Of a stretch of DNA of 64,000 bases, positions 1-13,660 are shown in pieces. The translations under genes were made by a program, and so were the position numbers. The stretch is from Candidatus Obscuribacterales bacterium. Its GTDB lineage: Bacteria > Cyanobacteriota > Vampirovibrionia > Obscuribacterales > Obscuribacteraceae. The notes below the pieces were generated by a model. The model was not told the DNA's origin. It saw nothing but the letters and a program-made list of their open reading frames with translations, and did not search any database. Position 1 is the stretch's first letter. Every line of letters begins with the position of its first letter. The stretch covers positions 434,001-498,000 of the forward strand of contig JAHBVO010000003.1 in NCBI GenBank assembly GCA_019637435.1. Reading direction: 5' to 3'.

Positions 1-205
1 ATTAGGGTTAAACGTGACTGCATCGTTACCGATATGGCAGCAAGCTTCGTACTCTTCCCAGGAGCGGGTTTTGAAAGACCGGAAATTTGCATCAATTTTG
101 CGCATGCCGGAAGAACGTTTTCTCGGACTGTTCCAGAAACGTGATGCTGTCGGCGTGAGGAGATACTCTGTATAATCAATTCGGTTGGAAGCTTGGGCGC
201 GGAAG
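1..205. other. Window edge: no certain gene; possible 3' end of an upstream gene
   Basis: Two overlapping plus-strand frames stay open from the left edge (2-175, ending MPEERFLGLFQK...RRYSV then TAA; and 1-144). Either could be the tail of a gene that starts outside the window, but 57 codons or fewer are not enough to choose. No similarity is recognised. Confidence 0.25.
169..176 (+). promoter_or_regulatory. Candidate -10 box (TGTATAAT) for the response-regulator gene
   Basis: A perfect TATAAT hexamer lies at 171-176 with a TG just before it, about 30 bases before the proposed ATG at 206. No convincing -35 hexamer is seen at 16-18 bases upstream, so this would work as an extended-type -10. 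The assignment rests on sequence alone. Confidence 0.4.
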
Positions 206-895
206 ATGGCAAAAATTTTGCTGATAGAAGACGATCTGACGATTGGCGAATCGCTGAAGCTGCAATTGCAAAAGCGCGGAAACGAAGTCGAGTGGGTTGA
301 GGACGGCGTTGAAGGTTTAAGCCGCTTGCGGTTTTACCATTATGATCTTGCATTAGTTGATTGGGTGTTGCCAGGATTGACCGGACCGGAGATCGTAAAG
401 CAATACAGAAGTCATGGTGGCTTAGCGCCGGTGATGATGCTGACTTCCATGAATGAGGTCAATCAGAAAATCGAGGGGCTTGATTCCGGTGCGGATGATT
501 ACGTCACGAAGCCGTTCAATGTCGACGAAGTCTGTGCGCGTATTCAAGCTCTGCTTCGGCGCCCGGCGAATCTCATGCCGGCAACGATTCGGGTCGGCAC
601 TATTGAAATTGATGTGGGTCGGAAACTTGTTACGCGCAACGGCGTACCGATTAAACTCTTGCCTAAAGAATTTGCGCTGCTCGAGTTTCTATTGCGGCAT
701 GCCGATCAGTTCTTCGAGGTAAACGCCCTACTGGACCGGGTCTGGGGATCTGAATCGGACGCGACAGATGCTGCTGTCTGGCAGGCAGTCAAAAGATTGA
801 GAAATAAGCTTGATGATTCTACTGGTGAATCTATCATCGTCAATGTAAAAGGAATGGGCTACAAAATTGACAAAAGCCGCATACAGAGCGGCTGA
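206..895 (+). CDS. OmpR/PhoB-family response regulator
   Basis: DNA-binding response regulator of 229 residues. The receiver domain (about 1-118) has the acidic pair E8/D9/D10, the phospho-acceptor D52 in LVDWVLPG, the switch Thr in MLTS and the conserved Lys in TKPF. The C-terminal winged helix (about 130-225) is of the Trans_reg_C type, with a recognition-helix region like AVWQAVKRLRNKLDD and the wing ending KGMGYKI. An in-frame TTG at 185 would add seven residues (MEAWARK), but MAKILLIEDD is the classical start, so ATG 206 is preferred. Its likely partner is the histidine kinase ending at 3655, which has one small unknown gene in between. Target genes are unknown. Confidence 0.93.
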   Translation: MAKILLIEDDLTIGESLKLQLQKRGNEVEWVEDGVEGLSRLRFYHYDLALVDWVLPGLTGPEIVKQYRSHGGLAPVMMLTSMNEVNQKIEGLDSGADDYVTKPFNVDEVCARIQALLRRPANLMPATIRVGTIEIDVGRKLVTRNGVPIKLLPKEFALLEFLLRHADQFFEVNALLDRVWGSESDATDAAVWQAVKRLRNKLDDSTGESIIVNVKGMGYKIDKSRIQSG

Positions 896-897
896 GT

Positions 898-924
898 AGG
901 CGTTTTTGAAAAAGGTGCCTTTCG
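898..924 (+). terminator. Weak hairpin after the response regulator
   Basis: AGGCGTTTTTG pairs imperfectly with AAAAAGGTGCCT and is followed by TTTCGG. The stem is AU-rich and the U-run is short, so termination would be partial at best. It sits right after the stop at 895, before the separately promoted or co-transcribed gene at 1107. Confidence 0.3.
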
Positions 925-1106
925 GTCAGCCAAATGTCAGGAAGCGATCGCATACTGATTCTGTTCGATGAATTGCGAGTTGCCGATGCGTCTGAAGAAC
1001 GTTTGCTTAAGCCAGTTCCGCGCGTCATTTACTAGTTGCAACTATTGAAATGTTTCTACCTCTCCACTCATTTTTGTCCAACGTTGTTGGACAGGAGGAT
1101 ACTATC

Positions 1107-1724
1107 ATGTCTAACTTTCACGCTTTTGAGAATCAAACAGGCAAAACCGATGCGGTCTCTTCGGCTGAGAACCCGCAGTTGAACCTGCTTTCCGCTATTG
1201 GCGATGGGGAGTGGGTGACGAACGCGCGGAAGTGGATCTCTGAGGAATTTCGGAAGCTGGCTAAGCCAGAGGCTTTACATGACGAGCAGGCAAACAGCAA
1301 AGATCTCAAGTCGCTCTTAGAAGGGAGTAAACTTCTGCCTCACGTCGAATTCGAGAACATGAAGGGGCTTCTGGAAGGCGACGCGGGCGGTTTCCTTGCA
1401 GGGAAACAAAACGCAAAACGTGCCGCCGACATTATCGCCGATGATAGCGATCTTGGAAGTGATACGCAGAAAAAGGAAATAGCGAAAATGTTCGAAGAAG
1501 CTTACGAGAAGGGTCCGGAGGCCGTTGCGAAACTGGTGAGGGATATCAATGCTGAACTTGAGAAGCGTGGCTCCGATGTTCGAGTGGGCGTTGAACAGGA
1601 TTTCGATCCCAAGCCGACGTGGGGCGAGAAAAAATATGGCAATGTCGTGGTTCGCAAGGATGGAGTCGTGGAGGACCGCGTCGCTGTCTACGAGAACAAC
1701 CCGATGAAGCGCAATCTGCTGTAG
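1107..1724 (+). CDS. Hypothetical acidic protein between response regulator and kinase
   Basis: A 205-residue protein that I do not recognise. The start is fixed by a perfect AGGAGG at 1093-1098, eight bases before ATG 1107; longer in-frame starts (GTG/TTG, from about 1050) lie upstream of that site and are unlikely. There is no signal peptide or membrane segment. The sequence is strongly charged, mostly helical in the middle (KEIAKMFEEAYEKGPEAVAKLVRDINAEL) and ends with a short beta-like stretch (GNVVVRKDGVVEDRVAVYENN). It sits between a response regulator and a histidine kinase on the same strand, so a role as target or modulator of that pair is possible, but this is inference from position only. 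Confidence 0.75.
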   Translation: MSNFHAFENQTGKTDAVSSAENPQLNLLSAIGDGEWVTNARKWISEEFRKLAKPEALHDEQANSKDLKSLLEGSKLLPHVEFENMKGLLEGDAGGFLAGKQNAKRAADIIADDSDLGSDTQKKEIAKMFEEAYEKGPEAVAKLVRDINAELEKRGSDVRVGVEQDFDPKPTWGEKKYGNVVVRKDGVVEDRVAVYENNPMKRNLL

Positions 1725-1755
1725 TTTCATTTCACCAGCAGTAGCGGTAAGGATG

Positions 1756-1783
1756 ATGGGGACTGCATTTTGCAGTCTCCATT
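1756..1783. terminator. Hairpin after the small unknown gene
   Basis: GGGGACTGCA and TGCAGTCTCC form a 10-bp stem around a short T-rich loop, about 32 bases past the stop at 1724. There is no real U-tract after it (ATTCCTTC), so it may be a weak terminator or an RNA-stability hairpin between the unknown gene and the kinase gene. Confidence 0.45.
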
Positions 1784-1804
1784 CCTTCACATTGTTGGAT
1801 TGGT

Positions 1805-3655
1805 ATGGTAGCTTATTGGGATTTACTAAAGCGGCAAGTTTCGAGTTGCGAACAAAAGATGCGTCCAAAGTCCTTTAATCCGATTCGAAATCTCAAGGCT
1901 TTCTACAAAGCGGCGACCATTGGCGTGGTTCTGGTTGCATTTGTGGGATTGTCTGGGTTTCAAATTCTGTCTCTGCAGCGAGAAGTCGATGAGGCCTATC
2001 GGAAAGATCGTGACATCACAGATGGTGTCGTTCTTATTCACCGGGCAATGAAGGCTGCTTACGATGCGCTTCGCGAGATAGTTTATTTTGAAACAGATCC
2101 TGCCAGCGCCGGAAAGGACTACGAGCAACGGTTTCAAAAAAGAATCGTCGAGCTGACTGAAATTGAAGGTCAACTGGCGCGCCAGAGAGCCACGAAGCAA
2201 ACAAATTTGAAAACGTTTATCGACGATTTGAAAAAAGAGTTGGGAAAAGTAAATGAGCTAGCCAATGTTCCATACGAGTCGTTTACAAAGGTAATGGCTG
2301 TTCAACGGGCTTCTTATTTAGGGCATGAGCTTACGCGCATAACCGAGAAGATGCTTGCCGAGCAGGAACGCATGAGTGTTAAGACGCGGAAGGAACTCGA
2401 TGCGAAACGAGATAAGCTGCGCAATACCGTTATTTTCGAATTCTCGTTCGGTGTCAGCCTGGTGGTATTGCTGGTGGTGATATTCAGTTTCGATCAATTG
2501 ATTCAACTCAACATAATGATGGCGAACTCGAACCGCTTTGCGCGAGGCGAGGAGCTGCTTCCGCAGGTTCCCGGCTCCGATGAGTTTGCGCAGTTGGATG
2601 AAACGTTTCACTCGATGGTTGCGTCGATCAATGCGCTGACGGAGCGGGAGAAGGCAGTATTTCGCAACACGAATGATCTGATTTTTGTCCTGGATGGTAC
2701 CTTTCGCGTGACGTTTATAAACGATGCAAGCCGCTCCATGCTGGGGATTGCGCCCGAGAATTTGTTGCAGGTTTCGGTTGTCGAATGGAGTGACACCATC
2801 GTCAAATCGCTGGAGAAGTGCGTCGAACTTGAGAATTTTACGTTTGAAGAAATGCTGAAAGGCGCCGAGGGGCAAGTTGCTGAGGTTGAGATTTCTGCGC
2901 ATTGGTCTGAGCGTGATCGGTCGTTTTACTGTGTAGGGCATGATATCGGGTCTCGCAAAGAGCTTGAGCGCATGAAACAAGGTTTTCTTGCAATGGTGAC
3001 GCATGATTTGCGCAGTCCAATTGCTGCCAATCAATTGGCGCTGGAAATGTTGCTTGAAGAACCGAAGATGGGCTCGTTATCAGAGGATGGCGAACGATTG
3101 ATTCGTCGAATTTTGTCGAGTGACAAGAAGTTGACGGCGCTGATTAACGACTTGCTTGATATGGAGAAATTGAATGCGGGGCAGTTAAGTCTAGATATGG
3201 AGCTGGTTTCCTTCAACGACCTGATTGAAGAGTCGATTGGTTTGCTGGAGCCGCTCATCAAAGCTCAGAAGATTGAGTTGAAACGCGATGATGTGGATAC
3301 GCTCATCTACTGCGACTCGGCACGGATCGTTCAGGTTGTTTCCAACATTTTTTCGAACGCGCTAAAGGTTTCTAAACCAGGTGATACCATCGAACTGCGT
3401 TTCAGTGAAACTCCCGAGGAGTCTATAGTTTCAGTAAAGGATAATGGTCCGGGAATTCCGATCGAGTTTCTTCCAATGCTGTTTGAGCAGTACACGCAAA
3501 CGGGCGAAAAGTCGCTCATGAAGAAGGGAAGCGGCTTGGGACTAGCGATCAGCAAAAAACTTGTAGACCTGCACGACGGCGAAATCGTGGTGTCCACCGA
3601 AGTCGGAAAGGGAACGTGTTTCGAAATCCGCCTCCCCAAGCGATCGATACTATAG
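1805..3655 (+). CDS. Membrane sensor histidine kinase (HAMP-PAS-HisKA-HATPase)
   Basis: A 616-residue sensor kinase. TM1 lies at about 36-56, followed by a long helical extracytoplasmic region of some 150 residues with no recognised ligand fold. TM2 is at about 209-232, a HAMP-like linker follows to about 280, then a PAS domain (NDLIFVLDGTFRVTFIND, about 285-380). The HisKA domain carries the phospho-accepting His in MVTHDLRSP (about H400). The HATPase has an N-box (FSNALKVS), G1 (DNGPGIP) and G2 (GSGLGLAISKKL). An alternative ATG at 1859 (MRPKSF) still precedes TM1; neither start has a clear Shine-Dalgarno site. It probably phosphorylates the regulator encoded at 206-895. The PAS suggests cytoplasmic sensing in addition to the periplasmic helices. 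Confidence 0.92.
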   Translation: MVAYWDLLKRQVSSCEQKMRPKSFNPIRNLKAFYKAATIGVVLVAFVGLSGFQILSLQREVDEAYRKDRDITDGVVLIHRAMKAAYDALREIVYFETDPASAGKDYEQRFQKRIVELTEIEGQLARQRATKQTNLKTFIDDLKKELGKVNELANVPYESFTKVMAVQRASYLGHELTRITEKMLAEQERMSVKTRKELDAKRDKLRNTVIFEFSFGVSLVVLLVVIFSFDQLIQLNIMMANSNRFARGEELLPQVPGSDEFAQLDETFHSMVASINALTEREKAVFRNTNDLIFVLDGTFRVTFINDASRSMLGIAPENLLQVSVVEWSDTIVKSLEKCVELENFTFEEMLKGAEGQVAEVEISAHWSERDRSFYCVGHDIGSRKELERMKQGFLAMVTHDLRSPIAANQLALEMLLEEPKMGSLSEDGERLIRRILSSDKKLTALINDLLDMEKLNAGQLSLDMELVSFNDLIEESIGLLEPLIKAQKIELKRDDVDTLIYCDSARIVQVVSNIFSNALKVSKPGDTIELRFSETPEESIVSVKDNGPGIPIEFLPMLFEQYTQTGEKSLMKKGSGLGLAISKKLVDLHDGEIVVSTEVGKGTCFEIRLPKRSIL

Positions 3656-3668: not shown

Positions 3669-3740
3669 CTATAGGAAAGCATAGGAGTGATTCCGTGAAA
3701 ACCTGCACCACAAGCCATTTCTCGTGCCATCTCGTCGCAG

Positions 3741-4280
3741 GCGGAGTCGGTATTGTCTACGGGAGAGCGCCGAATTTTTGCAATTGCGTCATAGCCAGAT
3801 AGCCAAAGGTCTGGGCGCTTGGTGGGGCGAATTCAGGTATGGTCCTCTCCATGAGGGTTCCGTTCCCCGAAATAGCACTAGAGAAGATAGTTGGAAAATT
3901 TGGGGCGAGATGGAGTCGGCGAGGCATTCTTGGGCGATTGCGTTCGTTGGCGGAGTCTGTGTTGTCTACGGGAGACCGCCGGATTTTTGCAATTGCGTCA
4001 TAGCCAGATAGCCAAAGGGCTGTGCGCTAGGTGGGGCGAATTCAGGTATTGTCCTCTCCATGAGGGTTTTGTTCCCCGAAATAGCACTAGAGAAGATAGT
4101 AGAAAAATTTGGGGCGAGATGGAGTCGGCGAGGCATTCTTGGGCGATTGCGTTCGTTGGCGGAGTCGGTGTTGTCTACGGGAGAGCGCCGAATTTTTGCA
4201 ATTGCGTCATAGCCAGATAGCCAAAGGTCTGGGCGCTTGGTGGGGCGAATTCAGGTATTGTCCTCTCCATGAGGGTTTTG
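3741..4280 (+). repeat. 209-bp tandem repeat, about 2.6 copies, with palindrome cores
   Basis: The stretch reading ATTGCGTCATAGCCAGATAG recurs at about 3784, 3993 and 4202, giving an exact period of 209 bases. Each unit contains a half-palindrome core (GTCTACGGGAG...ATAGCC) related to the elements at 27.8, 43.9 and 51 kb, and an ACTAGAGAAGATAGT motif about 90 bases after the core in the first two copies. The last copy is followed by the CATATAGTAG tail at 4302-4311. It fills the gap between the convergent kinase gene and the MoxR operon. Small open frames here only reflect the repetition and show no start signals. Confidence 0.9.
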
Positions 4281-4324
4281 GGACGCCCGGCGAAGCTAGA
4301 TCATATAGTAGCGAGTTTTTTTAA

Positions 4325-4369
4325 AGGGAGGAGGCGCAGACCCGGGTGGGGTCTGCGTCTCCTCTTGTT
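4325..4369 (-). terminator. Strong hairpin at the 3' end of the MoxR operon
   Basis: GAGGAGGCGCAGACC pairs with GGTCTGCGTCTCCTC (about 15 bp with few mismatches) directly downstream of the last operon gene, whose stop is at 4378. On the minus strand the stem is followed by CCTTTAAAAAAAC rather than a clean U-run. It is GC-rich enough to terminate or protect the operon mRNA. Confidence 0.6.
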
Positions 4370-4377
4370 TCGCGCTC

Positions 4378-5277
4378 TTACTTGGCGCGTTTCCACTTGG
4401 ACAGCACGGCTTCCGCTTGTTTCCAAAGTGCGGCGCGTTCGTCGTCCGACAGGGGTTGGTCGGAGTAGATCGCGGGCTCGTTTCCAGCCAGGAAGCGGGT
4501 GACGAGCGTGTCGTAGAGCTTGTCGTCCTTCAGCTGCGCGGCCGGGATTGGACCGATGCTGAATCGGGCGCGAACCAGTCCGTCGAGCTCGAGGTGTTCC
4601 GCTTTCGAGCAGTTGCCATTCCGGATGAGACCGGTGATTGCGACTGCGCGTTCATAGACCTGGTCGACGACCGGACCTCTGACGCGGGTCTTGAGCCAGT
4701 GACGGAATGCCACCACTGTCAGTGCCAGGAAGATGATGCTCGAGAGCGCGAGCGGGATGGCGTGACGCAGCGTGTACCAGAGAACCGGCACGCGCGGATC
4801 GGCGCCTTCCATCAGCTCCTTGCGACCATCCCAGGTGTTGGAGGTGAAGAGCGAGAGCGGTTTGATCGTCAGATCTTGCCGCTTGTCGTCGACTCGATAG
4901 CTGATCGAGCCCTCCATCACTTGCTCCGGCTTGAAGCGGAAGCTCTGCATGGCGAGAGCGAAGCGATAAACAGTCGAGCCGTCTTTCAGGTCCTTCTGCG
5001 AAACCGCCGGCTTGTCCGCCAGTTCGAAATCGCCGCCGATGGACAGGGTCTTGGGGTCGACCACCGTTCCAGGCGCACTGCGCACGAACAGCTCGACCTC
5101 GATCAGATCGCCGAGGTGGTGAGCATAGTCGCGCTCGACCTTGACCACGACCTGGGGTTCGTTCGAGGCTGCCGCGGGAAAGTCCGGCCAGCTCGGTCTG
5201 GTGAAGAACCAGAACGCGACGCCGACCGCGACGACGATTGCGAAAATCGCCGCCAGGGAAATCAGACGTTTCTTCAT
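4378..5277 (-). CDS. BatD/MxaA-like membrane protein, last gene of the MoxR operon
   Basis: A 299-residue membrane protein. It starts MKKRLISLAAIFAIVV with a membrane anchor (about 5-26), has an extracytoplasmic beta-sandwich-like region (about 45-180, with VVVKVERDYAHHLGDLIEVELFV as its first strands), a second membrane segment (IPLALSSIIFLALTVVAF, about 192-212) and a cytoplasmic helical tail. This layout is that of BatD/MxaA-type partners of MoxR-VWA systems; I do not see a clear motif, so the call rests on topology and context. The ATG at 5277 overlaps the stop of the upstream VWA gene (ATGA), and a GGAGGAAC site precedes it, indicating translational coupling. A longer reading frame upstream of 5277 lies inside the VWA gene and is rejected. 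Confidence 0.75.
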   Translation of the reverse strand: MKKRLISLAAIFAIVVAVGVAFWFFTRPSWPDFPAAASNEPQVVVKVERDYAHHLGDLIEVELFVRSAPGTVVDPKTLSIGGDFELADKPAVSQKDLKDGSTVYRFALAMQSFRFKPEQVMEGSISYRVDDKRQDLTIKPLSLFTSNTWDGRKELMEGADPRVPVLWYTLRHAIPLALSSIIFLALTVVAFRHWLKTRVRGPVVDQVYERAVAITGLIRNGNCSKAEHLELDGLVRARFSIGPIPAAQLKDDKLYDTLVTRFLAGNEPAIYSDQPLSDDERAALWKQAEAVLSKWKRAK

Positions 5278-6440
5278 GTCTTGTTCCTCCGTCCGAAGCT
5301 GCCGAGCCGCCACTGGTTGGTGACGGCGATGGACAGTGCAAGAGAAATGAACGCTGCGATCAGCGCCCATGGGAAGAGTTCGACGGTACCGCCTACGGTG
5401 GCAGTCGACTTCTTGCCGACGTACTTGAGCAGGTCGACGTCGGTGTCGTTCTGAAGGTGAATGAACTCACCGCCAGAAATATTCGCCAGGTTCTGAAGCA
5501 GGGCGGCGTTCATGCCTGACTTCTCGATCTGCCCGTCGGTTTCGAGCCAACGCTTGCCGTTGTCCTTGAGGGCGATGGCAGTGGCGTCGTCGGCGGCGAG
5601 CTTGCTGACCGGGATCTTCGAGGGCATGACATTGCCCATCGCGACCACGATCACCTTCACTCCACGCTCCCTGGCTTTCTGGGCGAAGTCGACGAGCTTT
5701 TCTTGCTTGTCGTCATTGCCGCCGTCGGAGAACAGGATGAGGACCCGTTCGTGCGTTGCCGGCGAATCGGCATCGAACATGGCGAGCGCCAGCTCGAGTG
5801 CTTTGCCCATGCCCGAACCTTCGCCCGGGGCGCTGGAAATCGTCAGACCGCGGTCGACGACCCACCTGAGAGCGGAGGCGTCCTTGGTCAGAAAGGCTTG
5901 CGGAAACGCTTCGCCTGCGTAGCTCACCAGTCCCAGGTAGTTTCCGTCGAGCTGCGCGATGAGCTTGTCGAGGAGGATATGGCGGACCATCTCGAGGCGC
6001 GTTCCCGCGTCCTTGTCCTCCTTCTCCTCCTTGCGCGCGATCGGGCGCCCGAAGTTGTCGAACTCACGGGTAGGCTCGATCAGGCGCTTCGCCACTGCTG
6101 ACGGTGGCACCTTGCCGTCGTAATCGAGCGCCGCCATGCTGCGACTCACGTCGGCGACCGTGATCACGTCGACGGTGCCTTCTGCGATCGTCTTGGTCCC
6201 GTTGGGGATGACCGGGCGGGCCAGCGCGACGATGAGCAAACCCGCGGTGAGTGCGGCGAAAGCGGCGCGCGCCAGGTAGCGAGCAGGCGAGAGCGGTTTC
6301 GACGTCTGGGAAATCAAATCCCAGTCGCCGAACTGCGCCTGCATCGCTTTGCGCCGCCGCCAGTTTGCGAACACCAGAACACCCGCCAGGATGGCGACGA
6401 CCGGTGCGTAAAACAGCAATTCTTGGTTCAGGAAAAACAT
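5274..6440 (-). CDS. VWA-domain membrane protein (BatA/BatB/MxaL-like)
   Basis: A 388-residue membrane-anchored von Willebrand A protein. Two N-terminal membrane segments (about 9-26 and 57-76) lead into a VWA domain. The MIDAS motif is intact: D97, S99 and S101 in DVSRS, the threonine/serine region near SAPGEGSGMGKAL, and the aspartate in ILFSDGGNDD. A last membrane segment (FPWALIAAFISLALSIAV) closes the protein. In Bat and Mxa systems such proteins work with MoxR ATPases in maturation of periplasmic or membrane complexes. An unusual feature is the charged insert after the MIDAS (KRLIEPTREF...KEEKEDKDAG, about 115-145). It is separated by 9 bases from the TPR gene before it and is coupled to the BatD-like gene after it. 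Confidence 0.88.
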   Translation of the reverse strand: MFFLNQELLFYAPVVAILAGVLVFANWRRRKAMQAQFGDWDLISQTSKPLSPARYLARAAFAALTAGLLIVALARPVIPNGTKTIAEGTVDVITVADVSRSMAALDYDGKVPPSAVAKRLIEPTREFDNFGRPIARKEEKEDKDAGTRLEMVRHILLDKLIAQLDGNYLGLVSYAGEAFPQAFLTKDASALRWVVDRGLTISSAPGEGSGMGKALELALAMFDADSPATHERVLILFSDGGNDDKQEKLVDFAQKARERGVKVIVVAMGNVMPSKIPVSKLAADDATAIALKDNGKRWLETDGQIEKSGMNAALLQNLANISGGEFIHLQNDTDVDLLKYVGKKSTATVGGTVELFPWALIAAFISLALSIAVTNQWRLGSFGRRNKT

Positions 6441-6449
6441 CTGTCGCTC

Positions 6450-6935
6450 CTAAATCTTGTGCTGGATTTTGCCCTTGTCGGGCTGTCCGCCACCCTTGCC
6501 GCCTTGCGCCTGGATCATCTCCAGGTTGTACTTGGCGGGAAGGTGATCGGGGTTCATCCGCAGCGTGTCTTCATAGTTCTGGATAGCCTTGTCGAACTTC
6601 TCCTGCTTGTGGTAAATCTTGCCGAGCAGGAAGTAGGTGCGTTCGAGCTTCCAGCGGTCGAGACGGTTGTACCGGCCGCTTTTGTCGATCAGCTTCTCGA
6701 GCTGGAGTTCCAGCACCCGAGCGGCATCGTCGAGCTTACCCTCGTCGTACGCCTTGGCGGCGCCGTTGAGGAGGATTTCGGTTTGGTCGGCGACCAGGCT
6801 GGTGCGCGCCTCTCGGAAGTTGTCCTTCGAGAGGGGGAGCGCGTAGGTGAAGAACCCGTAGAAGCCGTAACCGAATGCTAAAGCGATTGCCAGGGATAGA
6901 ACGAGCCTCCCCAGCGGTTTTGCTTTGTTGAGCAT
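6450..6935 (-). CDS. Small membrane-anchored TPR protein of the MoxR operon
   Basis: A 161-residue protein beginning MLNKAKPLGRLVLSLAIALAF, so with one N-terminal membrane anchor (about 9-32). A helical region (TEILLNGAAKAYDEGKLDDAARVLELQLEKL) and a clear TPR (ERTYFLLGKIYHKQEKFDKAIQNYEDTLRMNPD) follow, with a Gly/Lys-rich end. TPR partners (BatC/BatE, MxaK) lie between VWA genes in related operons, which fits its position here. The start at 6935 has a GAGGT site and lies 4 bases after the stop of the preceding VWA gene; longer upstream frames overlap that gene and are rejected. Confidence 0.82.
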   Translation of the reverse strand: MLNKAKPLGRLVLSLAIALAFGYGFYGFFTYALPLSKDNFREARTSLVADQTEILLNGAAKAYDEGKLDDAARVLELQLEKLIDKSGRYNRLDRWKLERTYFLLGKIYHKQEKFDKAIQNYEDTLRMNPDHLPAKYNLEMIQAQGGKGGGQPDKGKIQHKI

Positions 6936-6939
6936 GTTG

Positions 6940-7974
6940 TTACCTCGTGAGTACAAACACCTCCGAGAGCAGGAACAGCCCGAGGAAACCCAGGGCAGCC
7001 CACGCGAAGATGAAGAACACATCGTTGCGTGTTTCCTGTTCGGAGATAGTTACGGCAGACTTTTCCAGCCTGTCGATTGTGGCGAAACAATCGTTGAGCG
7101 CCTCGGTGTTTTCCACGCGGAAGACGCTGCCGCCGACGCGGTTGGCGAGTTTGACGATGCCGACTTCCTTCTGTGCGAGCGTCTCGCCGATGCCGACCAG
7201 GTACAACTTGATGTTGTTTTCCTGGAGGACCTGGATGAGGCGGCGCTCCGTCTGCGAATCGATGTCATCTTCGCCGTCGGTGACCAGAATCAGAACGCGC
7301 GACTTTGCTTGACCGGACTCCTTGAAGTGCTCGGCGGCCAGGTCGATTGGACCGGGCGGCACTTTTCCGAAGTTGGTGCCGGTGCCGAGGTTGTTCTGGA
7401 TGAACTGCGCCTTGCGGTACAGCATCCGGAGGTCGTCGGTGATCGGCCAGCCGTAGCGCGGGTTGACGTCGAAGAGGATGAGTCCGATGCGGTCGCCGGT
7501 CTGCTTCTTCCAGCGGTTCTCGATGAAGTTGAGGAGCGCGACTTGCGTTGCATGGATGCGCTGCAGCCGGCCGTCGGTCGGCGGCTTGAACTGCAAGCCC
7601 TTCCATTCGCGGCGCCGGTCATTGAAGTCCGACTTGAACGCGAGTTCGGGCGGCGTCTCTTGCGGTGCCAGCTTGCCCTTCCAGGGGAAGCTCATCGAGT
7701 ACGAGATGTCGACCGCGAGGATGATATCGCGGCCGGGGATGGTCTTGTGGACCGGGTCGCCGGGAACTTGCGGGCGAGCCAGTGCCACTACGAGCAGTGT
7801 CAGCGCGATGGCCGCGAACGCAATCGGCGCCCGTGCCAGAATGCGCAGAAACCGCGAGCTCGTCGCGGTCAGCAAACGATGGTCCGAGTATCCGAGATAC
7901 CCTCGCTTCTTCAGGACGAAGAGGAAGGGCACAAGCAGGATAGCCGCGAACCAGAGAGGTTGCGCGAATGTCAT
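6940..7974 (-). CDS. VWA-domain membrane protein (BatA/MxaC-like)
   Basis: A 344-residue VWA protein. It opens with a short membrane segment (LWFAAILLVPFLFVL), a basic loop and a second membrane segment (about 49-66, ending VALARPQVP). The VWA domain has an intact MIDAS start, D89-I-S91-Y-S93, and the later ILVTDGEDD. A C-terminal membrane segment (FFIFAWAALGFLGLFLLSEVF) anchors it again. It is a paralogue of the VWA protein encoded at 5274-6440, matching the BatA/BatB pair. A loop of about 50 residues sits between MIDAS and the next helix. Its ATG overlaps the TGA of the YwqK-like gene before it (ATGA), so the two are coupled. Confidence 0.88.
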   Translation of the reverse strand: MTFAQPLWFAAILLVPFLFVLKKRGYLGYSDHRLLTATSSRFLRILARAPIAFAAIALTLLVVALARPQVPGDPVHKTIPGRDIILAVDISYSMSFPWKGKLAPQETPPELAFKSDFNDRRREWKGLQFKPPTDGRLQRIHATQVALLNFIENRWKKQTGDRIGLILFDVNPRYGWPITDDLRMLYRKAQFIQNNLGTGTNFGKVPPGPIDLAAEHFKESGQAKSRVLILVTDGEDDIDSQTERRLIQVLQENNIKLYLVGIGETLAQKEVGIVKLANRVGGSVFRVENTEALNDCFATIDRLEKSAVTISEQETRNDVFFIFAWAALGFLGLFLLSEVFVLTR

Positions 7975-9035
7975 TGTTTCCTTCCCTTCTCGACTCTGTT
8001 GAGAAGACCGACCTCGTCCAGGAACACGTCCTGGTCGATGGTTTCTGGCGTGCCGCCGGCCTGCTCCGAGACGATGGTTGTGCCCGCGGCGTCGTAAGTC
8101 GTGGTTTTCACGACCTTGTCGCCCACATCGAGCTGTTTCACTGTTGCGAGGGTGCCGTCCGCGCGGAACTGTTGAACTGCGCTGACGATGCCGCGGTCGT
8201 CGTCGATGAGATAGACGCGAGTGATCCGGCCGGTTTCGAGCGAGTACTCTTCCACCTTCACCATGCCCCAGCCCTTGTAGTACTGGCGCAGGCGGAGCTT
8301 GCCTGACTCGGGCGCGTAAACTTCACGCACCTTTGCCTGCAAGTTGCCGGTGAGCTTGAACAGGAGCTTGCCCGAAGGCGTGAAGCCCTCGCCCTCCTGT
8401 TCGCCGTCGAGGCGGGTTGTCTTGGAACGGTACTTGAGCGAGCCGTCGTCCCAGAGCATCTCTTCCCAGCTGTCGCCGTTCGCCTTGAAGATACTGCGGC
8501 TGGTGACCTTTCCGTTGCTGTACATGCTTGTGACAGCGTCGGCGTTGTCGAGGATCTTGCGCTCCATCTGGAGATTGCCCTCGCGATCGTACTGGCGCAC
8601 TTCCGCCGGCACCAGCCCATCTTCGGTGTTGATGGTTTCGGTGCTGATCTTGCCGTTGTTCGGCCAGAAAGTCCGCTCCGCCCGGAACGTGAGTTCATCA
8701 CCGTTCCAGAGCTTGTGAAGCACGAGGATTTTGCCGTCATAGGTGAACTGCTTCTCCTCGACGGTTCCGTCCTCGATGCTGCGTTGCTTCGAATGAATCA
8801 GAGCACCGCGCTCGTTCCACTCGTTGAGGGAGATGACGGTCGTGCCGTCGTCGCCGAATTCGACTCGCGAGGCGAGCTTGCCGTTGGGGTAGCGCACCTC
8901 TTTGGACGCTACTGTGCCGTCCCACCAGCGCGTTTCCACGCCCCGAGGGTCAGCTGTCACACCCTTGTGGATGAGGGTGGCGAAAACAAATGCTAGCATC
9001 AGAGCGCCCGTGAAGGCGCACCATTTCAGCGTCAT
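7971..9035 (-). CDS. YwqK/MORN-like beta-repeat protein inside the MoxR operon
   Basis: A 354-residue protein with an N-terminal membrane anchor or uncleaved signal (WCAFTGALMLAFVFATLI) followed by about 12 short repeats of the form 'YxNGKLxSRxEFxDDGT' (for example RYPNGKLASRVEF, WDDGSLKYRSKT, RADGTLATVKQL). These resemble the YwqK/toxin-antitoxin MORN_2 repeats. A start at 9050 (MRRHIM) overlaps the previous stop, but it contains the AGGAGG that serves the ATG at 9035, so 9035 is chosen. I know of no such protein as a standard member of Bat or Mxa operons, and its job there is unknown. It is probably extracytoplasmic, alongside the VWA domains' partners. Confidence 0.8.
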   Translation of the reverse strand: MTLKWCAFTGALMLAFVFATLIHKGVTADPRGVETRWWDGTVASKEVRYPNGKLASRVEFGDDGTTVISLNEWNERGALIHSKQRSIEDGTVEEKQFTYDGKILVLHKLWNGDELTFRAERTFWPNNGKISTETINTEDGLVPAEVRQYDREGNLQMERKILDNADAVTSMYSNGKVTSRSIFKANGDSWEEMLWDDGSLKYRSKTTRLDGEQEGEGFTPSGKLLFKLTGNLQAKVREVYAPESGKLRLRQYYKGWGMVKVEEYSLETGRITRVYLIDDDRGIVSAVQQFRADGTLATVKQLDVGDKVVKTTTYDAAGTTIVSEQAGGTPETIDQDVFLDEVGLLNRVEKGRKQ

Positions 9036-9046
9036 GATATGCCTCC

Positions 9047-9970
9047 TCATCGGGTGGGAGCCTGAAGTTGTGTGAGTACGCGGGTTGAGGCGGTGTCGCC
9101 CTCCTCGGTGCTCACGTTGATGGCGGTGGCGCGGCAGTCTTTCAGCCGCTCCATCACCTGGATCTGGCGTGCTTCCGCGGCGGCCTTATGGCGCGCAGCG
9201 GTTTTCTTCGTGACCCAGAGGTCGCGAACAACGCCGCCGGCATCCTGCACCGTGTAGAGAACGGGCAGCCAGCCGACCTTGGGCAGCTCGCGTTCGAGCT
9301 TGTCCTGCACGAACATGGCGATCACCCGGTGTCTGCGCCCAGCGCGCTTGAGCGCCTCCCAGTCGGCTTCCGTCGTGTTGATGAAATCGCTGACGACGAA
9401 AACGATGGACGGGCTGCGCGGCAGGAGCGCGAGCCCCTTCGCCAGTCCGCTGTGATTGTCCGGGCGGACCGTGTGCTGCGACTTGAGCGTATGCAGGATG
9501 ACGGGAAGCATCATCGAGGCGGGTGAACCGCTCTTGACGCGCCGCTCCACACCCCATTGCGAGTATGTCACCAGTGCGATCGGATCGTGCGTCGTGGCGA
9601 GGGAGCGAACGCCGCACGCCGCCAGTTCCGCTGCGAGCACGCGTTTGGTCACGCGGCTGCTTCCGAAGTTCATGGTGGGCGAAACGTCGCAGAGAATCGT
9701 GCTCTTCACATGCGATTCTTCTTTGAACAGCGCCACCAGTATCTGCTGACCGCCCGTCAGAGCGGTCGCATTCCAATCGATCGTGCGCGGGTCGTCGCCG
9801 GGCACGTAGAGTTCGTGACCGTCGAAGTCGTCGCCTTCACCGCGGTGGATGGAACGCCTGTCGCCAGGAAGCCGCTGATGCGACTTCATTCTGCCGACGG
9901 GAATCTCCACTGCAGCTACTCGGCGTGCGATCTCGCGAACGATCCCCATTGTTTGAGGGTCGGTTTGCAT
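9047..9970 (-). CDS. DUF58 protein (MxaS/YeaD2-like), partner of MoxR
   Basis: A 307-residue DUF58 protein. The family motif is plain: LYVPGDDPRTIDWNATA (about residues 54-70), followed by a VWA-like fold with CDVSPTMNFGSSR (a DxSxS-like MIDAS in which the last Ser is shifted) and a later VVSDFINT. DUF58 genes almost always follow moxR, as here. The start is ATG 9970, eight bases after GGAG; a GTG at 9976 is in frame but badly spaced. There is no membrane segment, so the protein is cytosolic and probably bridges the ATPase and the membrane VWA proteins. Confidence 0.9.
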   Translation of the reverse strand: MQTDPQTMGIVREIARRVAAVEIPVGRMKSHQRLPGDRRSIHRGEGDDFDGHELYVPGDDPRTIDWNATALTGGQQILVALFKEESHVKSTILCDVSPTMNFGSSRVTKRVLAAELAACGVRSLATTHDPIALVTYSQWGVERRVKSGSPASMMLPVILHTLKSQHTVRPDNHSGLAKGLALLPRSPSIVFVVSDFINTTEADWEALKRAGRRHRVIAMFVQDKLERELPKVGWLPVLYTVQDAGGVVRDLWVTKKTAARHKAAAEARQIQVMERLKDCRATAINVSTEEGDTASTRVLTQLQAPTR

Positions 9971-10015
9971 GAGCACATCTCCGTTTAGCTAATAAGAAAA
10001 CACCCGAAGGCGCTC

Positions 10016-11047
10016 TCAGGCAGCCTTGGGAGCGTACTGGTCGGTGTCCTTCGAGAACTTGACGTTCTCGACGATCTTCTCGATCACCGAGTCCGACTTG
10101 GTACCGTTGGCGGTGGCTTCGAAGGTGAGGGCGACGCGATGGCGCAGGGTCGGCAGCACGACTTCCTGGATGTCCTCCGGGGTGACGAACGCGCGGCCCT
10201 TGATGGCGGCGAGAACGCGGGCCAGACCGCGGATGGAGAGCTGACCGCGCACGGAGCTGCCGACTTCGATCAGGTTGTTGAACTTGGAGTCCGCCTTCAC
10301 GATAGCCGCGTGCTCTTCGAGACCCGGACGGGTCGCGCGCACCAGGGCGACGATGTACTGCATGGCGGCGGGCGAGACGTAGACGCCCTTCTTGATGAGC
10401 TGGCGCAGCTCGATGACTTCTTCGATCGAAATCACCTGCTTCACGACGTCCTGCGGATCGCGGCTGTCGAGCGCCTCGTTGGCGAGGATCAGCTCTTCGT
10501 CCGCGGCCGAGGCGTAAGGGACGACCAGTTTCATGGCGAAGCGGTCGACGGCGGCTTCCGGCAGTGGATAGACGCCTTCCTGCTCGACCGGGTTCTGCGT
10601 CGCCATGACGAAGTACGGGTCGGGCAGGACGATCTCCTGGCCGGAGATGTAGATGCGCCGCTCCTGCATCGAGGAGAGCACGGACGAAAGGGTCTTGCCC
10701 GGGGCGCGGTTGATTTCGTCGATCAGGACGAAGTTCTTGCCGCTGAGCGGACCTTCTTCGGTGACGAAGGCGGCCATGCCCGGGTTCCAGACCTTGACGC
10801 CGACGAGATCCATCGGCTTGACGTCGGCGGTCATCTGAACGCGAACGCTCTTCGAGTTCTTGACCGACCGCTGGAACACCTCGACGAACAGCGACTTGGC
10901 CGTGCCGGGGAGACCTTCGAGGAGGACGTGCTGATCGGCGAGCATGGACGCGATCGAAAGCCGCTTGACGCTGGCGTATCCGATGACGACCTTGTCCATT
11001 TCGGCGGTCAGGCGAGAAAACGAGTCACAGACATTCTGAGTAATCAT
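10016..11047 (-). CDS. MoxR-family AAA+ ATPase
   Basis: A 343-residue MoxR-type AAA+ ATPase. It has Walker A GLPGTAKS (45-52), Walker B VLIDEINRAPGK (about 103-114), sensor 1 in VMATQNP and the MoxR signature QEGVYPLPEAAVDRFAMKL. The lid region contains RATRP and the typical 'GSSVRGQLSIRGLARVLAAIKGRAFVTPEDI' pattern. MoxR proteins act as chaperone-like ATPases with VWA partners to assemble or activate protein complexes, for instance metal or cofactor insertion in methanol dehydrogenase. The start MITQNV at 11047 has GAGG six bases upstream; the reading frame continues upstream through the hairpin-rich leader but without a start signal. It is the first gene of the seven-gene operon. Confidence 0.95.
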   Translation of the reverse strand: MITQNVCDSFSRLTAEMDKVVIGYASVKRLSIASMLADQHVLLEGLPGTAKSLFVEVFQRSVKNSKSVRVQMTADVKPMDLVGVKVWNPGMAAFVTEEGPLSGKNFVLIDEINRAPGKTLSSVLSSMQERRIYISGQEIVLPDPYFVMATQNPVEQEGVYPLPEAAVDRFAMKLVVPYASAADEELILANEALDSRDPQDVVKQVISIEEVIELRQLIKKGVYVSPAAMQYIVALVRATRPGLEEHAAIVKADSKFNNLIEVGSSVRGQLSIRGLARVLAAIKGRAFVTPEDIQEVVLPTLRHRVALTFEATANGTKSDSVIEKIVENVKFSKDTDQYAPKAA

Positions 11048-11089: not shown

Positions 11090-11190
11090 GATGTGGAGGT
11101 CTTGCGACCTCGTGCGATGAGAACGAGATTTTGGAACCTCGTGATGCGACGAGGTCTGGTGACCTCGGGACGTGCAAGGTTGTGGGCCTT
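11090..11190 (-). promoter_or_regulatory. Hairpin-rich leader in front of the MoxR operon
   Basis: Within 100 bases before the operon there are two near-identical small hairpins, GAGGTC-TTGC-GACCTC (about 11096-11111) and GAGGTC-TGGT-GACCTC (about 11151-11166), plus a third pairing of ACGAG with CTCGT between them and AAGG/CCTT near 11178-11192. The repeated stems could form a structured 5' UTR or be operator half-sites. No known riboswitch is recognised. Confidence 0.45.
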
Positions 11191-13270: not shown

Positions 13271-13660
13271 GATTCAAGTGTCCAAGCGGTTCGCTGCAAA
13301 TTAGATTGCGGGATTAGCGGCAAAAGCTGCAAACCAATTTGCAAGCGCCTGATTTAGGACCCAAACTAGCCCGATTCAAGTATCCAAGCCGGTCGCTGCA
13401 AATTTGATTGCAGGATTAGCGGCAAAAGCTGCAAACCAATTTGCAGGCGCTCGATTTAGGGCCCAAACTAGCCCGATTCAAGTATCCAAGCCGGTCGCTG
13501 CAAATTTGATTGCAGGATTAGCGGCAAAAGCTGCAAACCAATTTGCAAGCGCCTGATTTAGGACCCAAACTAGCCCGATTCAAGCATCCAAGCCGGTCGC
13601 TGCAAATTTGATTGCAGGATTAGCGGCAAAAGCTGCAAACCAATTTGCAGGCGCTCGATA
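13271..13660 (+). repeat. 102-bp tandem repeat array, four copies (left array)
   Basis: GATTCAAG recurs at 13271, 13373, 13475 and 13577, an exact 102-base period; the last copy is cut short at about 13660. Each unit has two hairpin-forming palindromes: CTGCAAATTTGATTGCAG (6-bp stem) and CTGCAAACCAATTTGCAG (7-bp stem, 4-base loop), about 33 bases apart start to start, separated by GGCAAAAG. Copies differ by a few bases. An inverted array of the same period and core is at 16455-16918. In the frame corresponding to the right array's open frame, some copies here carry TGA stops, so the array is not coding. Confidence 0.93.

What the first reader, a model, noticed from the sequence alone, without database searches (positions are those of the whole stretch)
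4378..11047. Seven-gene MoxR operon with a YwqK/MORN-like repeat protein inserted
The order MoxR-DUF58-(YwqK-like)-VWA-TPR-VWA-BatD/MxaA-like has the elements of both Bat and Mxa systems. Three of the junctions are ATGA overlaps or share the start and stop signals, so products are likely to form one complex. The 354-aa repeat protein (7971-9035) is membrane-anchored and sits where mxaA would be expected. No methanol dehydrogenase or other client gene is adjacent, so the substrate is open.
Basis: partly seen in the sequence, partly recalled or inferred. Interest (0 to 1): 0.58.

Follow-up and report, generated by a model that had tools for sequence, protein, structure and literature searches.

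The report
Mxa-type chaperone operon with beta-sheet subunit
A non-photosynthetic relative of cyanobacteria carries a gene set like the one that helps methanol-eating bacteria finish building methanol dehydrogenase, but no such enzyme was found and the set has gained an extra membrane-anchored flat beta-sheet protein that has stayed with it in relatives, so what the machine works on is an open and testable question.

Summary
The host is an Obscuribacteraceae bacterium (Ca. Obscuribacter group). By gene order (MoxR, DUF58, -, VWA, TPR, VWA) and by profile (last gene = MxaA homologue, hhalign P 1e-11) this is a relative of the Mxa (methanol dehydrogenase maturation) operon, not a Bat/Mxa mixture. 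The YwqK-like gene occupies the slot that mxaA holds in 17 of 17 proteobacterial loci examined; the MxaA homologue is last. The YwqK-like gene is not a passenger: the seven-gene order recurs in 3 relatives, and YwqK-VWA-TPR-VWA-MxaA without MoxR/DUF58 in 3 more; those seven YwqK proteins form one clade (96/94). An eighth, divergent case may be a second recruitment. The protein is modelled as a TM helix plus a 25-strand single-layer beta-sheet like OspA/MORN (pLDDT 90); its TM segment is its best-conserved part (76% against 43%). No PQQ alcohol dehydrogenase passes the family cut-off in any of 50 family genomes, against 12 of 14 MxaA-bearing controls. Most likely it is a client-specific, periplasm-facing subunit of an orphan Mxa-type MoxR/VWA machine; whether it is adaptor or client is unresolved.

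The parts
10016..11047 (-). MoxR AAA+ ATPase (MxaR-like), 343 aa; Walker A GLPGTAKS and Walker B VLIDEIN readable in the sequence; cytoplasmic
   Evidence: Pfam AAA_3 145 bits, AAA_lid_2 60 bits; no membrane segment
9047..9976 (-). DUF58 protein (MxaS-like), about 307-309 aa; cytoplasmic
   Evidence: Pfam DUF58 104 bits; no membrane segment
7971..9035 (-). YwqK/MORN-like protein, 354 aa: one TM helix (about 3-23), 25-strand single-layer beta-sheet (33-330), short C-terminal helices; alternative ATG at 9050
   Evidence: AlphaFold2 model mean pLDDT 89.6; OspA best fold match Z 14.1; TM part 76% identical in the four closest copies against 43% for the sheet
6940..7974 (-). VWA1 (MxaC-like; also resembles BatA): TM-TM-VWA-TM with intact MIDAS DxSxS
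   Evidence: Pfam VWA 41.8 bits; BatA_Lepto 1.1e-22, under its curated cut-off; MIDAS in 33 of 34 VWA1 rows
6450..6935 (-). TPR protein with N-terminal TM helix (MxaK position), 161 aa
   Evidence: Pfam TPR_1 33.4 bits; its profile matches an ORF at this position in 11 of the 17 Mxa loci at E 0.0011 or less
5274..6440 (-). VWA2 (MxaL position): TM-TM-VWA-TM with intact MIDAS
   Evidence: Pfam VWA 43.5 bits; MIDAS in 33 of 34 VWA2 rows
4378..5277 (-). MxaA homologue, 299 aa: TM, Ig-like beta-sandwich (42-144), TM, C-terminal helical domain
   Evidence: hhalign to 17 MxaA proteins Prob 97.4, P 1.2e-11; AlphaFold2 mean pLDDT 92.8
4328..4364 (-). GC-rich hairpin behind the last stop, likely end of the transcript
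   Evidence: inverted repeat 16 bp, 94% complementary; not flagged by the pattern scan

Best explanation
The operon encodes an Mxa-type MoxR/VWA maturation machine of the cell envelope whose client is not methanol dehydrogenase. Inferred mechanism: a cytoplasmic MoxR ring works with the cytoplasmic VWA-like DUF58 protein; the MxaA homologue (periplasmic Ig domain, second TM, cytoplasmic helical domain) couples this ATPase to a periplasmic assembly of two membrane-anchored MIDAS-bearing VWA proteins and a TPR protein; the YwqK-like protein, held in that assembly by its conserved TM helix, presents a long flat OspA/MORN-type beta-sheet that binds the client and so sets the specificity of this copy of the machine, beside paralogous copies with other accessory genes or none. 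Shown here: gene content, homology to MxaA, co-inheritance of the YwqK-like gene with the VWA1 block, modelled fold, conserved anchor, absence of PQQ alcohol dehydrogenases over the cut-off. Inferred: topology, complex formation, adaptor role.
For: Order MoxR-DUF58-x-VWA-TPR-VWA equals that of the proteobacterial locus L181, whose neighbourhood also holds a CxxCH (cytochrome c-like) protein and an SRPBCC protein. Last gene = MxaA homologue (P 1.2e-11 and 3.4e-11 in the two directions; controls YwqK or VWA against MxaA give Prob 0.1 and 0.6). YwqK-like gene directly upstream of VWA1 in 8 of the 34 VWA1 clusters read; 7 of these 8 YwqK proteins form one clade (96/94), and six of the matching VWA1 proteins (window, L082-L085, L087) form one clade (97/97). 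Its TM segment is its most conserved stretch (76% against 43%), as expected for a partner held in the membrane. YwqK and MxaA diverge fastest (52% and 54% identity to G002) while MoxR, DUF58, VWA1, TPR and VWA2 stay at 73-81%. PQQ alcohol dehydrogenase over the cut-off in 0 of 50 family genomes against 12 of 14 MxaA-bearing controls. MoxR acting with a VWA partner on a client is established for NorQD (PMC9976466: abstract and Background section read).
Against: The full seven-gene order is in only 4 of 50 family genomes, and four relatives keep YwqK-VWA1 without MoxR/DUF58 nearby, so a direct tie to MoxR is weak. YwqK-family genes are numerous in these genomes (31 of 50 genomes match; 7 places in the window's own genome), mostly away from such operons. 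No interaction, expression or topology data. The positive-inside rule is not decisive for the YwqK anchor. The TM-over-sheet contrast could partly reflect loose constraint on beta repeats.
Confidence: 0.45

Rival explanations
1. The YwqK-like protein is the client: the machine folds, inserts or charges this beta-sheet protein (and perhaps the YwqK-family lipoproteins elsewhere in the genome), as Mxa genes sit beside their client MxaF.
For: It is encoded inside the operon and diverges fast, as clients may; these genomes hold many YwqK-family proteins, and four lie in tandem upstream of a VWA-MoxR operon in G008 (L166).
Against: Its anchor is more conserved than the rest, which fits a resident subunit better than a released client; paralogous operons in the same genomes (types B, C, D) lack it; no metal or cofactor site is evident.
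Confidence: 0.27
2. Bat-type aerotolerance/envelope-stress operon with a bystander repeat protein.
For: VWA and TPR genes give weak matches to Leptospira BatA (1e-22), BatB (3e-15) and BatC (7e-14) models, all far under their curated cut-offs; Bat clusters also carry MoxR, TPR and VWA genes (PMC3557215, passages read).
Against: TPR lies between the VWA genes; the last gene matches no Pfam model at E under 0.1 but matches MxaA.
Confidence: 0.12
3. Neutral passenger: the YwqK-like gene is one of many YwqK-family genes that happened to land here.
For: YwqK-family genes abound and most VWA1 clusters read (26 of 34) lack one.
Against: Position is kept over 22-52% identity in at least 7 genomes, with one clade on the YwqK tree; 4-nt overlap with VWA1; conserved anchor.
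Confidence: 0.06
4. A MoxR-vWA conflict (immunity) system of the ternary kind with a beta-repeat sensor in place of the beta-propeller.
For: MoxR plus VWA plus a beta-repeat protein; Pfam bpMoxR 44.5 bits on MoxR.
Against: AAA_3 scores far higher (145 bits); PADLOC matches are limited to weak ones for MoxR and TPR; no effector domain is fused to the VWA proteins, which are membrane proteins; an MxaA homologue is present.
Confidence: 0.04

Closest known systems
Mxa accessory genes of methylotrophs (mxaRSACKLD; Ca2+ insertion into MxaFI methanol dehydrogenase)
   Same: Gene order MoxR-DUF58-x-VWA-TPR-VWA; MxaA homologue present; similar predicted membrane layout
   Different: MxaA homologue is last, YwqK-like gene in its slot; no MxaD-like gene behind the block; no PQQ alcohol dehydrogenase over the cut-off in any of 50 family genomes
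Bat (Bacteroides aerotolerance) operons of Bacteroides and Leptospira
   Same: MoxR, VWA and TPR genes; weak BatA/B/C profile matches
   Different: TPR lies between the VWA genes; MxaA homologue as last gene
NorQD, CbbQO, RavA-ViaA (MoxR/VWA chaperone couples)
   Same: MoxR ATPase with a VWA-like partner
   Different: NorD is described as probably cytosolic (PMC9976466); here two membrane VWA proteins, MxaA, TPR and a beta-sheet protein are added
YwqK / MORN_2 repeat proteins; OspA and MORN single-layer sheets
   Same: Repeat pattern; single-layer beta-sheet fold (OspA Z 14.1, Toxoplasma MORN1 Z 9.7)
   Different: TM-anchored and operon-linked; MORN_2 score below the family cut-off; no toxin partner seen (YwqJ-YwqK pairing is recalled, not tested)

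Membership tests
Mxa accessory operon | Order MoxR-DUF58-(x)-VWA-TPR-VWA | tested here: met
   window and L181
Mxa accessory operon | MxaA homologue in the operon | tested here: met
   last gene, hhalign Prob 97.4 and P 1.2e-11 against 17 MxaA rows
Mxa accessory operon | MxaA between DUF58 and the first VWA gene | tested here: not met
   YwqK-like gene in that slot, MxaA homologue last; 17 of 17 reference loci have MxaA there
Mxa accessory operon | PQQ methanol/alcohol dehydrogenase client in the genome | tested here: not met
   TIGR03075 over cut-off in 0 of 50 family genomes; 12 of 14 in controls. Most are draft genomes
Bat operon | Adjacent VWA pair (BatA-BatB) followed by TPR (order recalled) | tested here: not met
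   TPR lies between the VWA genes
Bat operon | BatD as last Ig-type protein | tested here: inconclusive
   No Pfam model matches the last gene at E under 0.1; no BatD set of my own was compared
MoxR ATPase family | AAA_3 and AAA_lid_2 domains | tested here: met
   145 and 60 bits, over the cut-offs
MORN_2 / YwqK repeat family | Pfam MORN_2 over its gathering score | tested here: not met
   27.7 against 29.6 bits; the modelled fold still agrees with that kind of repeat
OspA/MORN-like single-layer beta-sheet | Fold match covering the sheet | tested here: met
   Predicted model against 2fkj_A: Z 14.1, 277 residues, rmsd 8.3; fold only, no claim of descent
MoxR-vWA ternary conflict systems | VMAP, iSTAND, FtsH or beta-propeller component | tested here: inconclusive
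   None seen among Pfam or PADLOC hits; no dedicated VMAP or iSTAND model was run

The most novel reading that the evidence does not exclude
Obscuribacteraceae have turned the Mxa machine into a set of parallel envelope-maturation machines with exchangeable specificity modules: a TM-anchored OspA-like beta-sheet protein here, a histone-deacetylase-like/GNAT gene pair in another copy, none in others, working on clients that are not quinoproteins. The YwqK-like sheet would be a new kind of client-binding subunit for a MoxR/VWA chaperone.
Probability: 0.3. Interest if true: 0.65.

Novelty: new variant of a known kind. Interest (0 to 1): 0.42.

Why it matters
MoxR/VWA machines are common, but few clients are known. 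A lineage that keeps several Mxa-type machines without any recognisable PQQ alcohol dehydrogenase suggests that the machine is not tied to that enzyme, and a dedicated beta-sheet partner gives a handle for fishing out the client. The searches of the open-access library ('Obscuribacter' with 'MoxR'; 'MoxR', 'MORN repeat', 'YwqK'; 'MoxR', 'DUF58', 'VWA', 'periplasm', 'MxaA') listed no paper that describes this pairing; subscription journals are not covered.

Tried and rejected
Rejected: (1) Bat/Mxa hybrid: TPR position and MxaA profile point to Mxa. (2) Passenger: position kept in 7 or 8 genomes. (3) Toxin-antitoxin reading of 'YwqK': nothing in the operon resembles a toxin in Pfam. (4) Conflict system. 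(5) Type B/C/D operons as the same system: they lack the YwqK-like gene.

Led nowhere: single-sequence hhalign of the last gene against one MxaA gave Prob 5.5 only, aligning just the R-x-(F/Y)-G-Y-x-x-G-D stretch; the profile-profile run was needed. The PDB fold search with the last gene found generic Ig-like matches only (Foldseek best E 6e-4, VIA Z 8.3). Three GAGGTYNCMARAYCTC hairpins upstream of moxR are absent from the three relatives' upstream regions. Holding all eight YwqK-bearing VWA1 proteins in one clade is rejected (p-AU 0.0004); without the long-branched L119 it is not rejected (p 0.14), but the tree does not show it either.

Limits: loci were chosen by VWA1 and YwqK similarity and 40 stretches were read, not every VWA1 match; VWA1 matches were found in 23 of the 36 family genomes searched there. 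High scores of A3 are partly by construction, since A3 was built from those seven proteins. The first gene map mis-picked frames in places (DUF58 of L083 and L109-L110 regions); one search picked better, but drew L083's YwqK and L084's TPR frames wrongly (both appear).
Full report
What is there. Seven minus-strand genes lie at 4378-11047 exactly as reported. Junctions are tight: gaps of 39, 11, -4, 4, 9 and -4 nt. A hairpin follows the last stop. The window is part of a 7.66-Mb genome in six contigs; the loci found in named records at over 30% identity carry titles of Ca. Obscuribacter, Obscuribacterales, Melainabacteria or Cyanobacteria, so the host is taken to be a member of the Obscuribacteraceae.

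What the proteins are. Pfam gives MoxR (AAA_3, AAA_lid_2), DUF58, VWA, TPR, VWA; the third gene is just below the MORN_2 cut-off, the last gene has nothing. NCBIfam gives weak Leptospira BatA/B/C matches far below the curated cut-offs. PADLOC gives nothing beyond weak hits for MoxR and TPR.

The last gene is an MxaA homologue. One proteobacterial locus among the VWA1 relatives (L181, a betaproteobacterial MAG) has MoxR-DUF58-301 aa-VWA-TPR-VWA, then a protein with a CxxCH motif and, further on, an SRPBCC protein. The 301-aa protein was taken as MxaA. Searching 274 genomes of that class found it in 14 (16 places); with one of two plasmid hits that made 17 proteins. In 17 of 17 loci it lies between DUF58 and VWA. 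The profile of the window's last gene was the best of my profiles for 9 of the 17 at E 0.0016 or better, and profile-profile comparison gave Prob 97.4, P 1.2e-11, aligned over 207 columns from the Ig-like domain through the second TM into the C-terminal domain. The controls, YwqK-like or VWA profiles against MxaA and YwqK-like against the last gene, gave Prob 0.1, 0.6 and 0.3. A single-sequence comparison had been inconclusive. The name MxaA rests on gene order and recall; no database model for it matched.

So the window operon is Mxa-type, with the MxaA homologue at the end and the YwqK-like gene in the mxaA slot. The roles of mxaACKLD in Ca2+ insertion and of mxaRSEH in maturation are stated in PMC11845868 (passage read). 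No match over the cut-off of the PQQ alcohol dehydrogenase model TIGR03075 occurs in any of 50 family genomes (49 of 50 have weak, partial matches), whereas 12 of the 14 MxaA-bearing genomes pass it. A quinoprotein alcohol dehydrogenase is therefore an unlikely client here.

The YwqK-like gene. The single-sequence search matched 14 of 99 genomes, the window's own included. Reading 40 stretches gave 34 clusters with VWA1, the window included. Eight have the YwqK-like gene directly upstream of VWA1: window, G002, G001 and G027 with MoxR-DUF58 in front; G013, G008, G021 and G017 with no MoxR or DUF58 in the stretches held (8 kb before VWA1 for G013 and G008; the contigs of G021 and G017 start 4.0 and 5.8 kb before it). 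Twenty-six lack it, among them the second operon of the window's own genome (L081). All four genomes without a local MoxR have MoxR matches elsewhere. On a VWA1 tree the four complete operons are one clade (100/100) and join G013 and G008 with support (97/97); G021 is unresolved and G017 falls with another lineage on a long branch. On a tree of 16 YwqK-family proteins the operon copies without G017 are one clade (96/94), set apart from copies elsewhere in the genomes. One old association with vertical inheritance, and perhaps a second one in G017, fits both trees. In a sample of 386 genomes of the phylum only the window's own gave a full-length match; two others had partial ones.

Shape and membrane. 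The model (mean pLDDT 89.6, seven sequences) is a TM helix and 25 strands in one layer. Fold matches are OspA (engineered OspA 2fkj Z 14.1, 277 residues, rmsd 8.3), TCP10/G-box domains (Z 11.8, rmsd 6.7, 181 residues) and MORN1 (Z 9.7, rmsd 7.6, 199 residues); the high rmsd probably reflects bending of a long sheet. In the four closest copies the first 24 residues are 76% identical, residues 25-330 43% and the tail 30%. Several copies elsewhere start like lipoproteins (L114 second copy, L115-L118; also the operon copy L119), which argues that the sheet faces the periplasm. Positively charged loops between the first two TM segments suggest that both VWA domains are periplasmic; this is inference.

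Mechanism. My reading: an Mxa-type MoxR/VWA maturation machine, with the YwqK-like sheet as its client-binding or client-presenting subunit. Shown: homology, order, co-inheritance, conserved anchor, no PQQ alcohol dehydrogenase over the cut-off. Inferred: complex, topology, energy coupling through the MxaA C-domain, adaptor role. NorQD gives the model for MoxR plus VWA (PMC9976466, abstract and Background read). The main rival, that the YwqK-like protein is the client, is not excluded.

Paralogous machines. The family keeps several copies per genome (G013 has four clusters among those read) in four layouts: with YwqK; MoxR-DUF58-VWA1-TPR-VWA2-MxaA without it (five read: L081, L100, L101, L102, L108); VWA1-TPR-VWA2-MoxR-DUF58-MxaA (six read); and a group of 15 without MoxR, of which 9 have a histone-deacetylase-like gene and 8 a GNAT-like gene close by. 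Some of these contigs are truncated, so these are lower bounds.

Verdict. Real, conserved in a small lineage, a new variant of the Mxa kind, with an unknown client. Interest moderate.

Noticed in passing
L088, L089, L091-L093, L095-L097, L103 (relatives; not in the window): A VWA1-TPR-VWA2-MxaA cluster without MoxR is preceded by a histone-deacetylase-family gene (9 of 15 clusters of this group) and a GNAT-like acetyltransferase gene (8 of 15, L094 included), often with a divergent GGDEF gene; an unusual pairing of acetylation enzymes with an Mxa-type block.
   Followed up: partly
window 3735-4361: Three 209-bp direct repeats (93% and 74% to the first) between the operon end and a histidine kinase gene.
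   Followed up: no
window 13271-13659: Tandem array of a 102-bp unit, 3.8 copies, 94% matches.
   Followed up: no
window 11096-11166: Three small inverted repeats GAGGTYNCMARAYCTC upstream of moxR, the only ones of this pattern in the window; absent from three relatives; possible operator or leader hairpins.
   Followed up: partly
L166 363-3801: Four YwqK-family ORFs in tandem upstream of a VWA-TPR-VWA-MoxR-DUF58-MxaA operon in G008; perhaps related clients or partners.
   Followed up: partly
window 185-3655: Response regulator and a membrane histidine kinase on the plus strand downstream of the operon; similar kinase and regulator genes turn up near some relatives' clusters (clusters c12, c13).
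   Followed up: no
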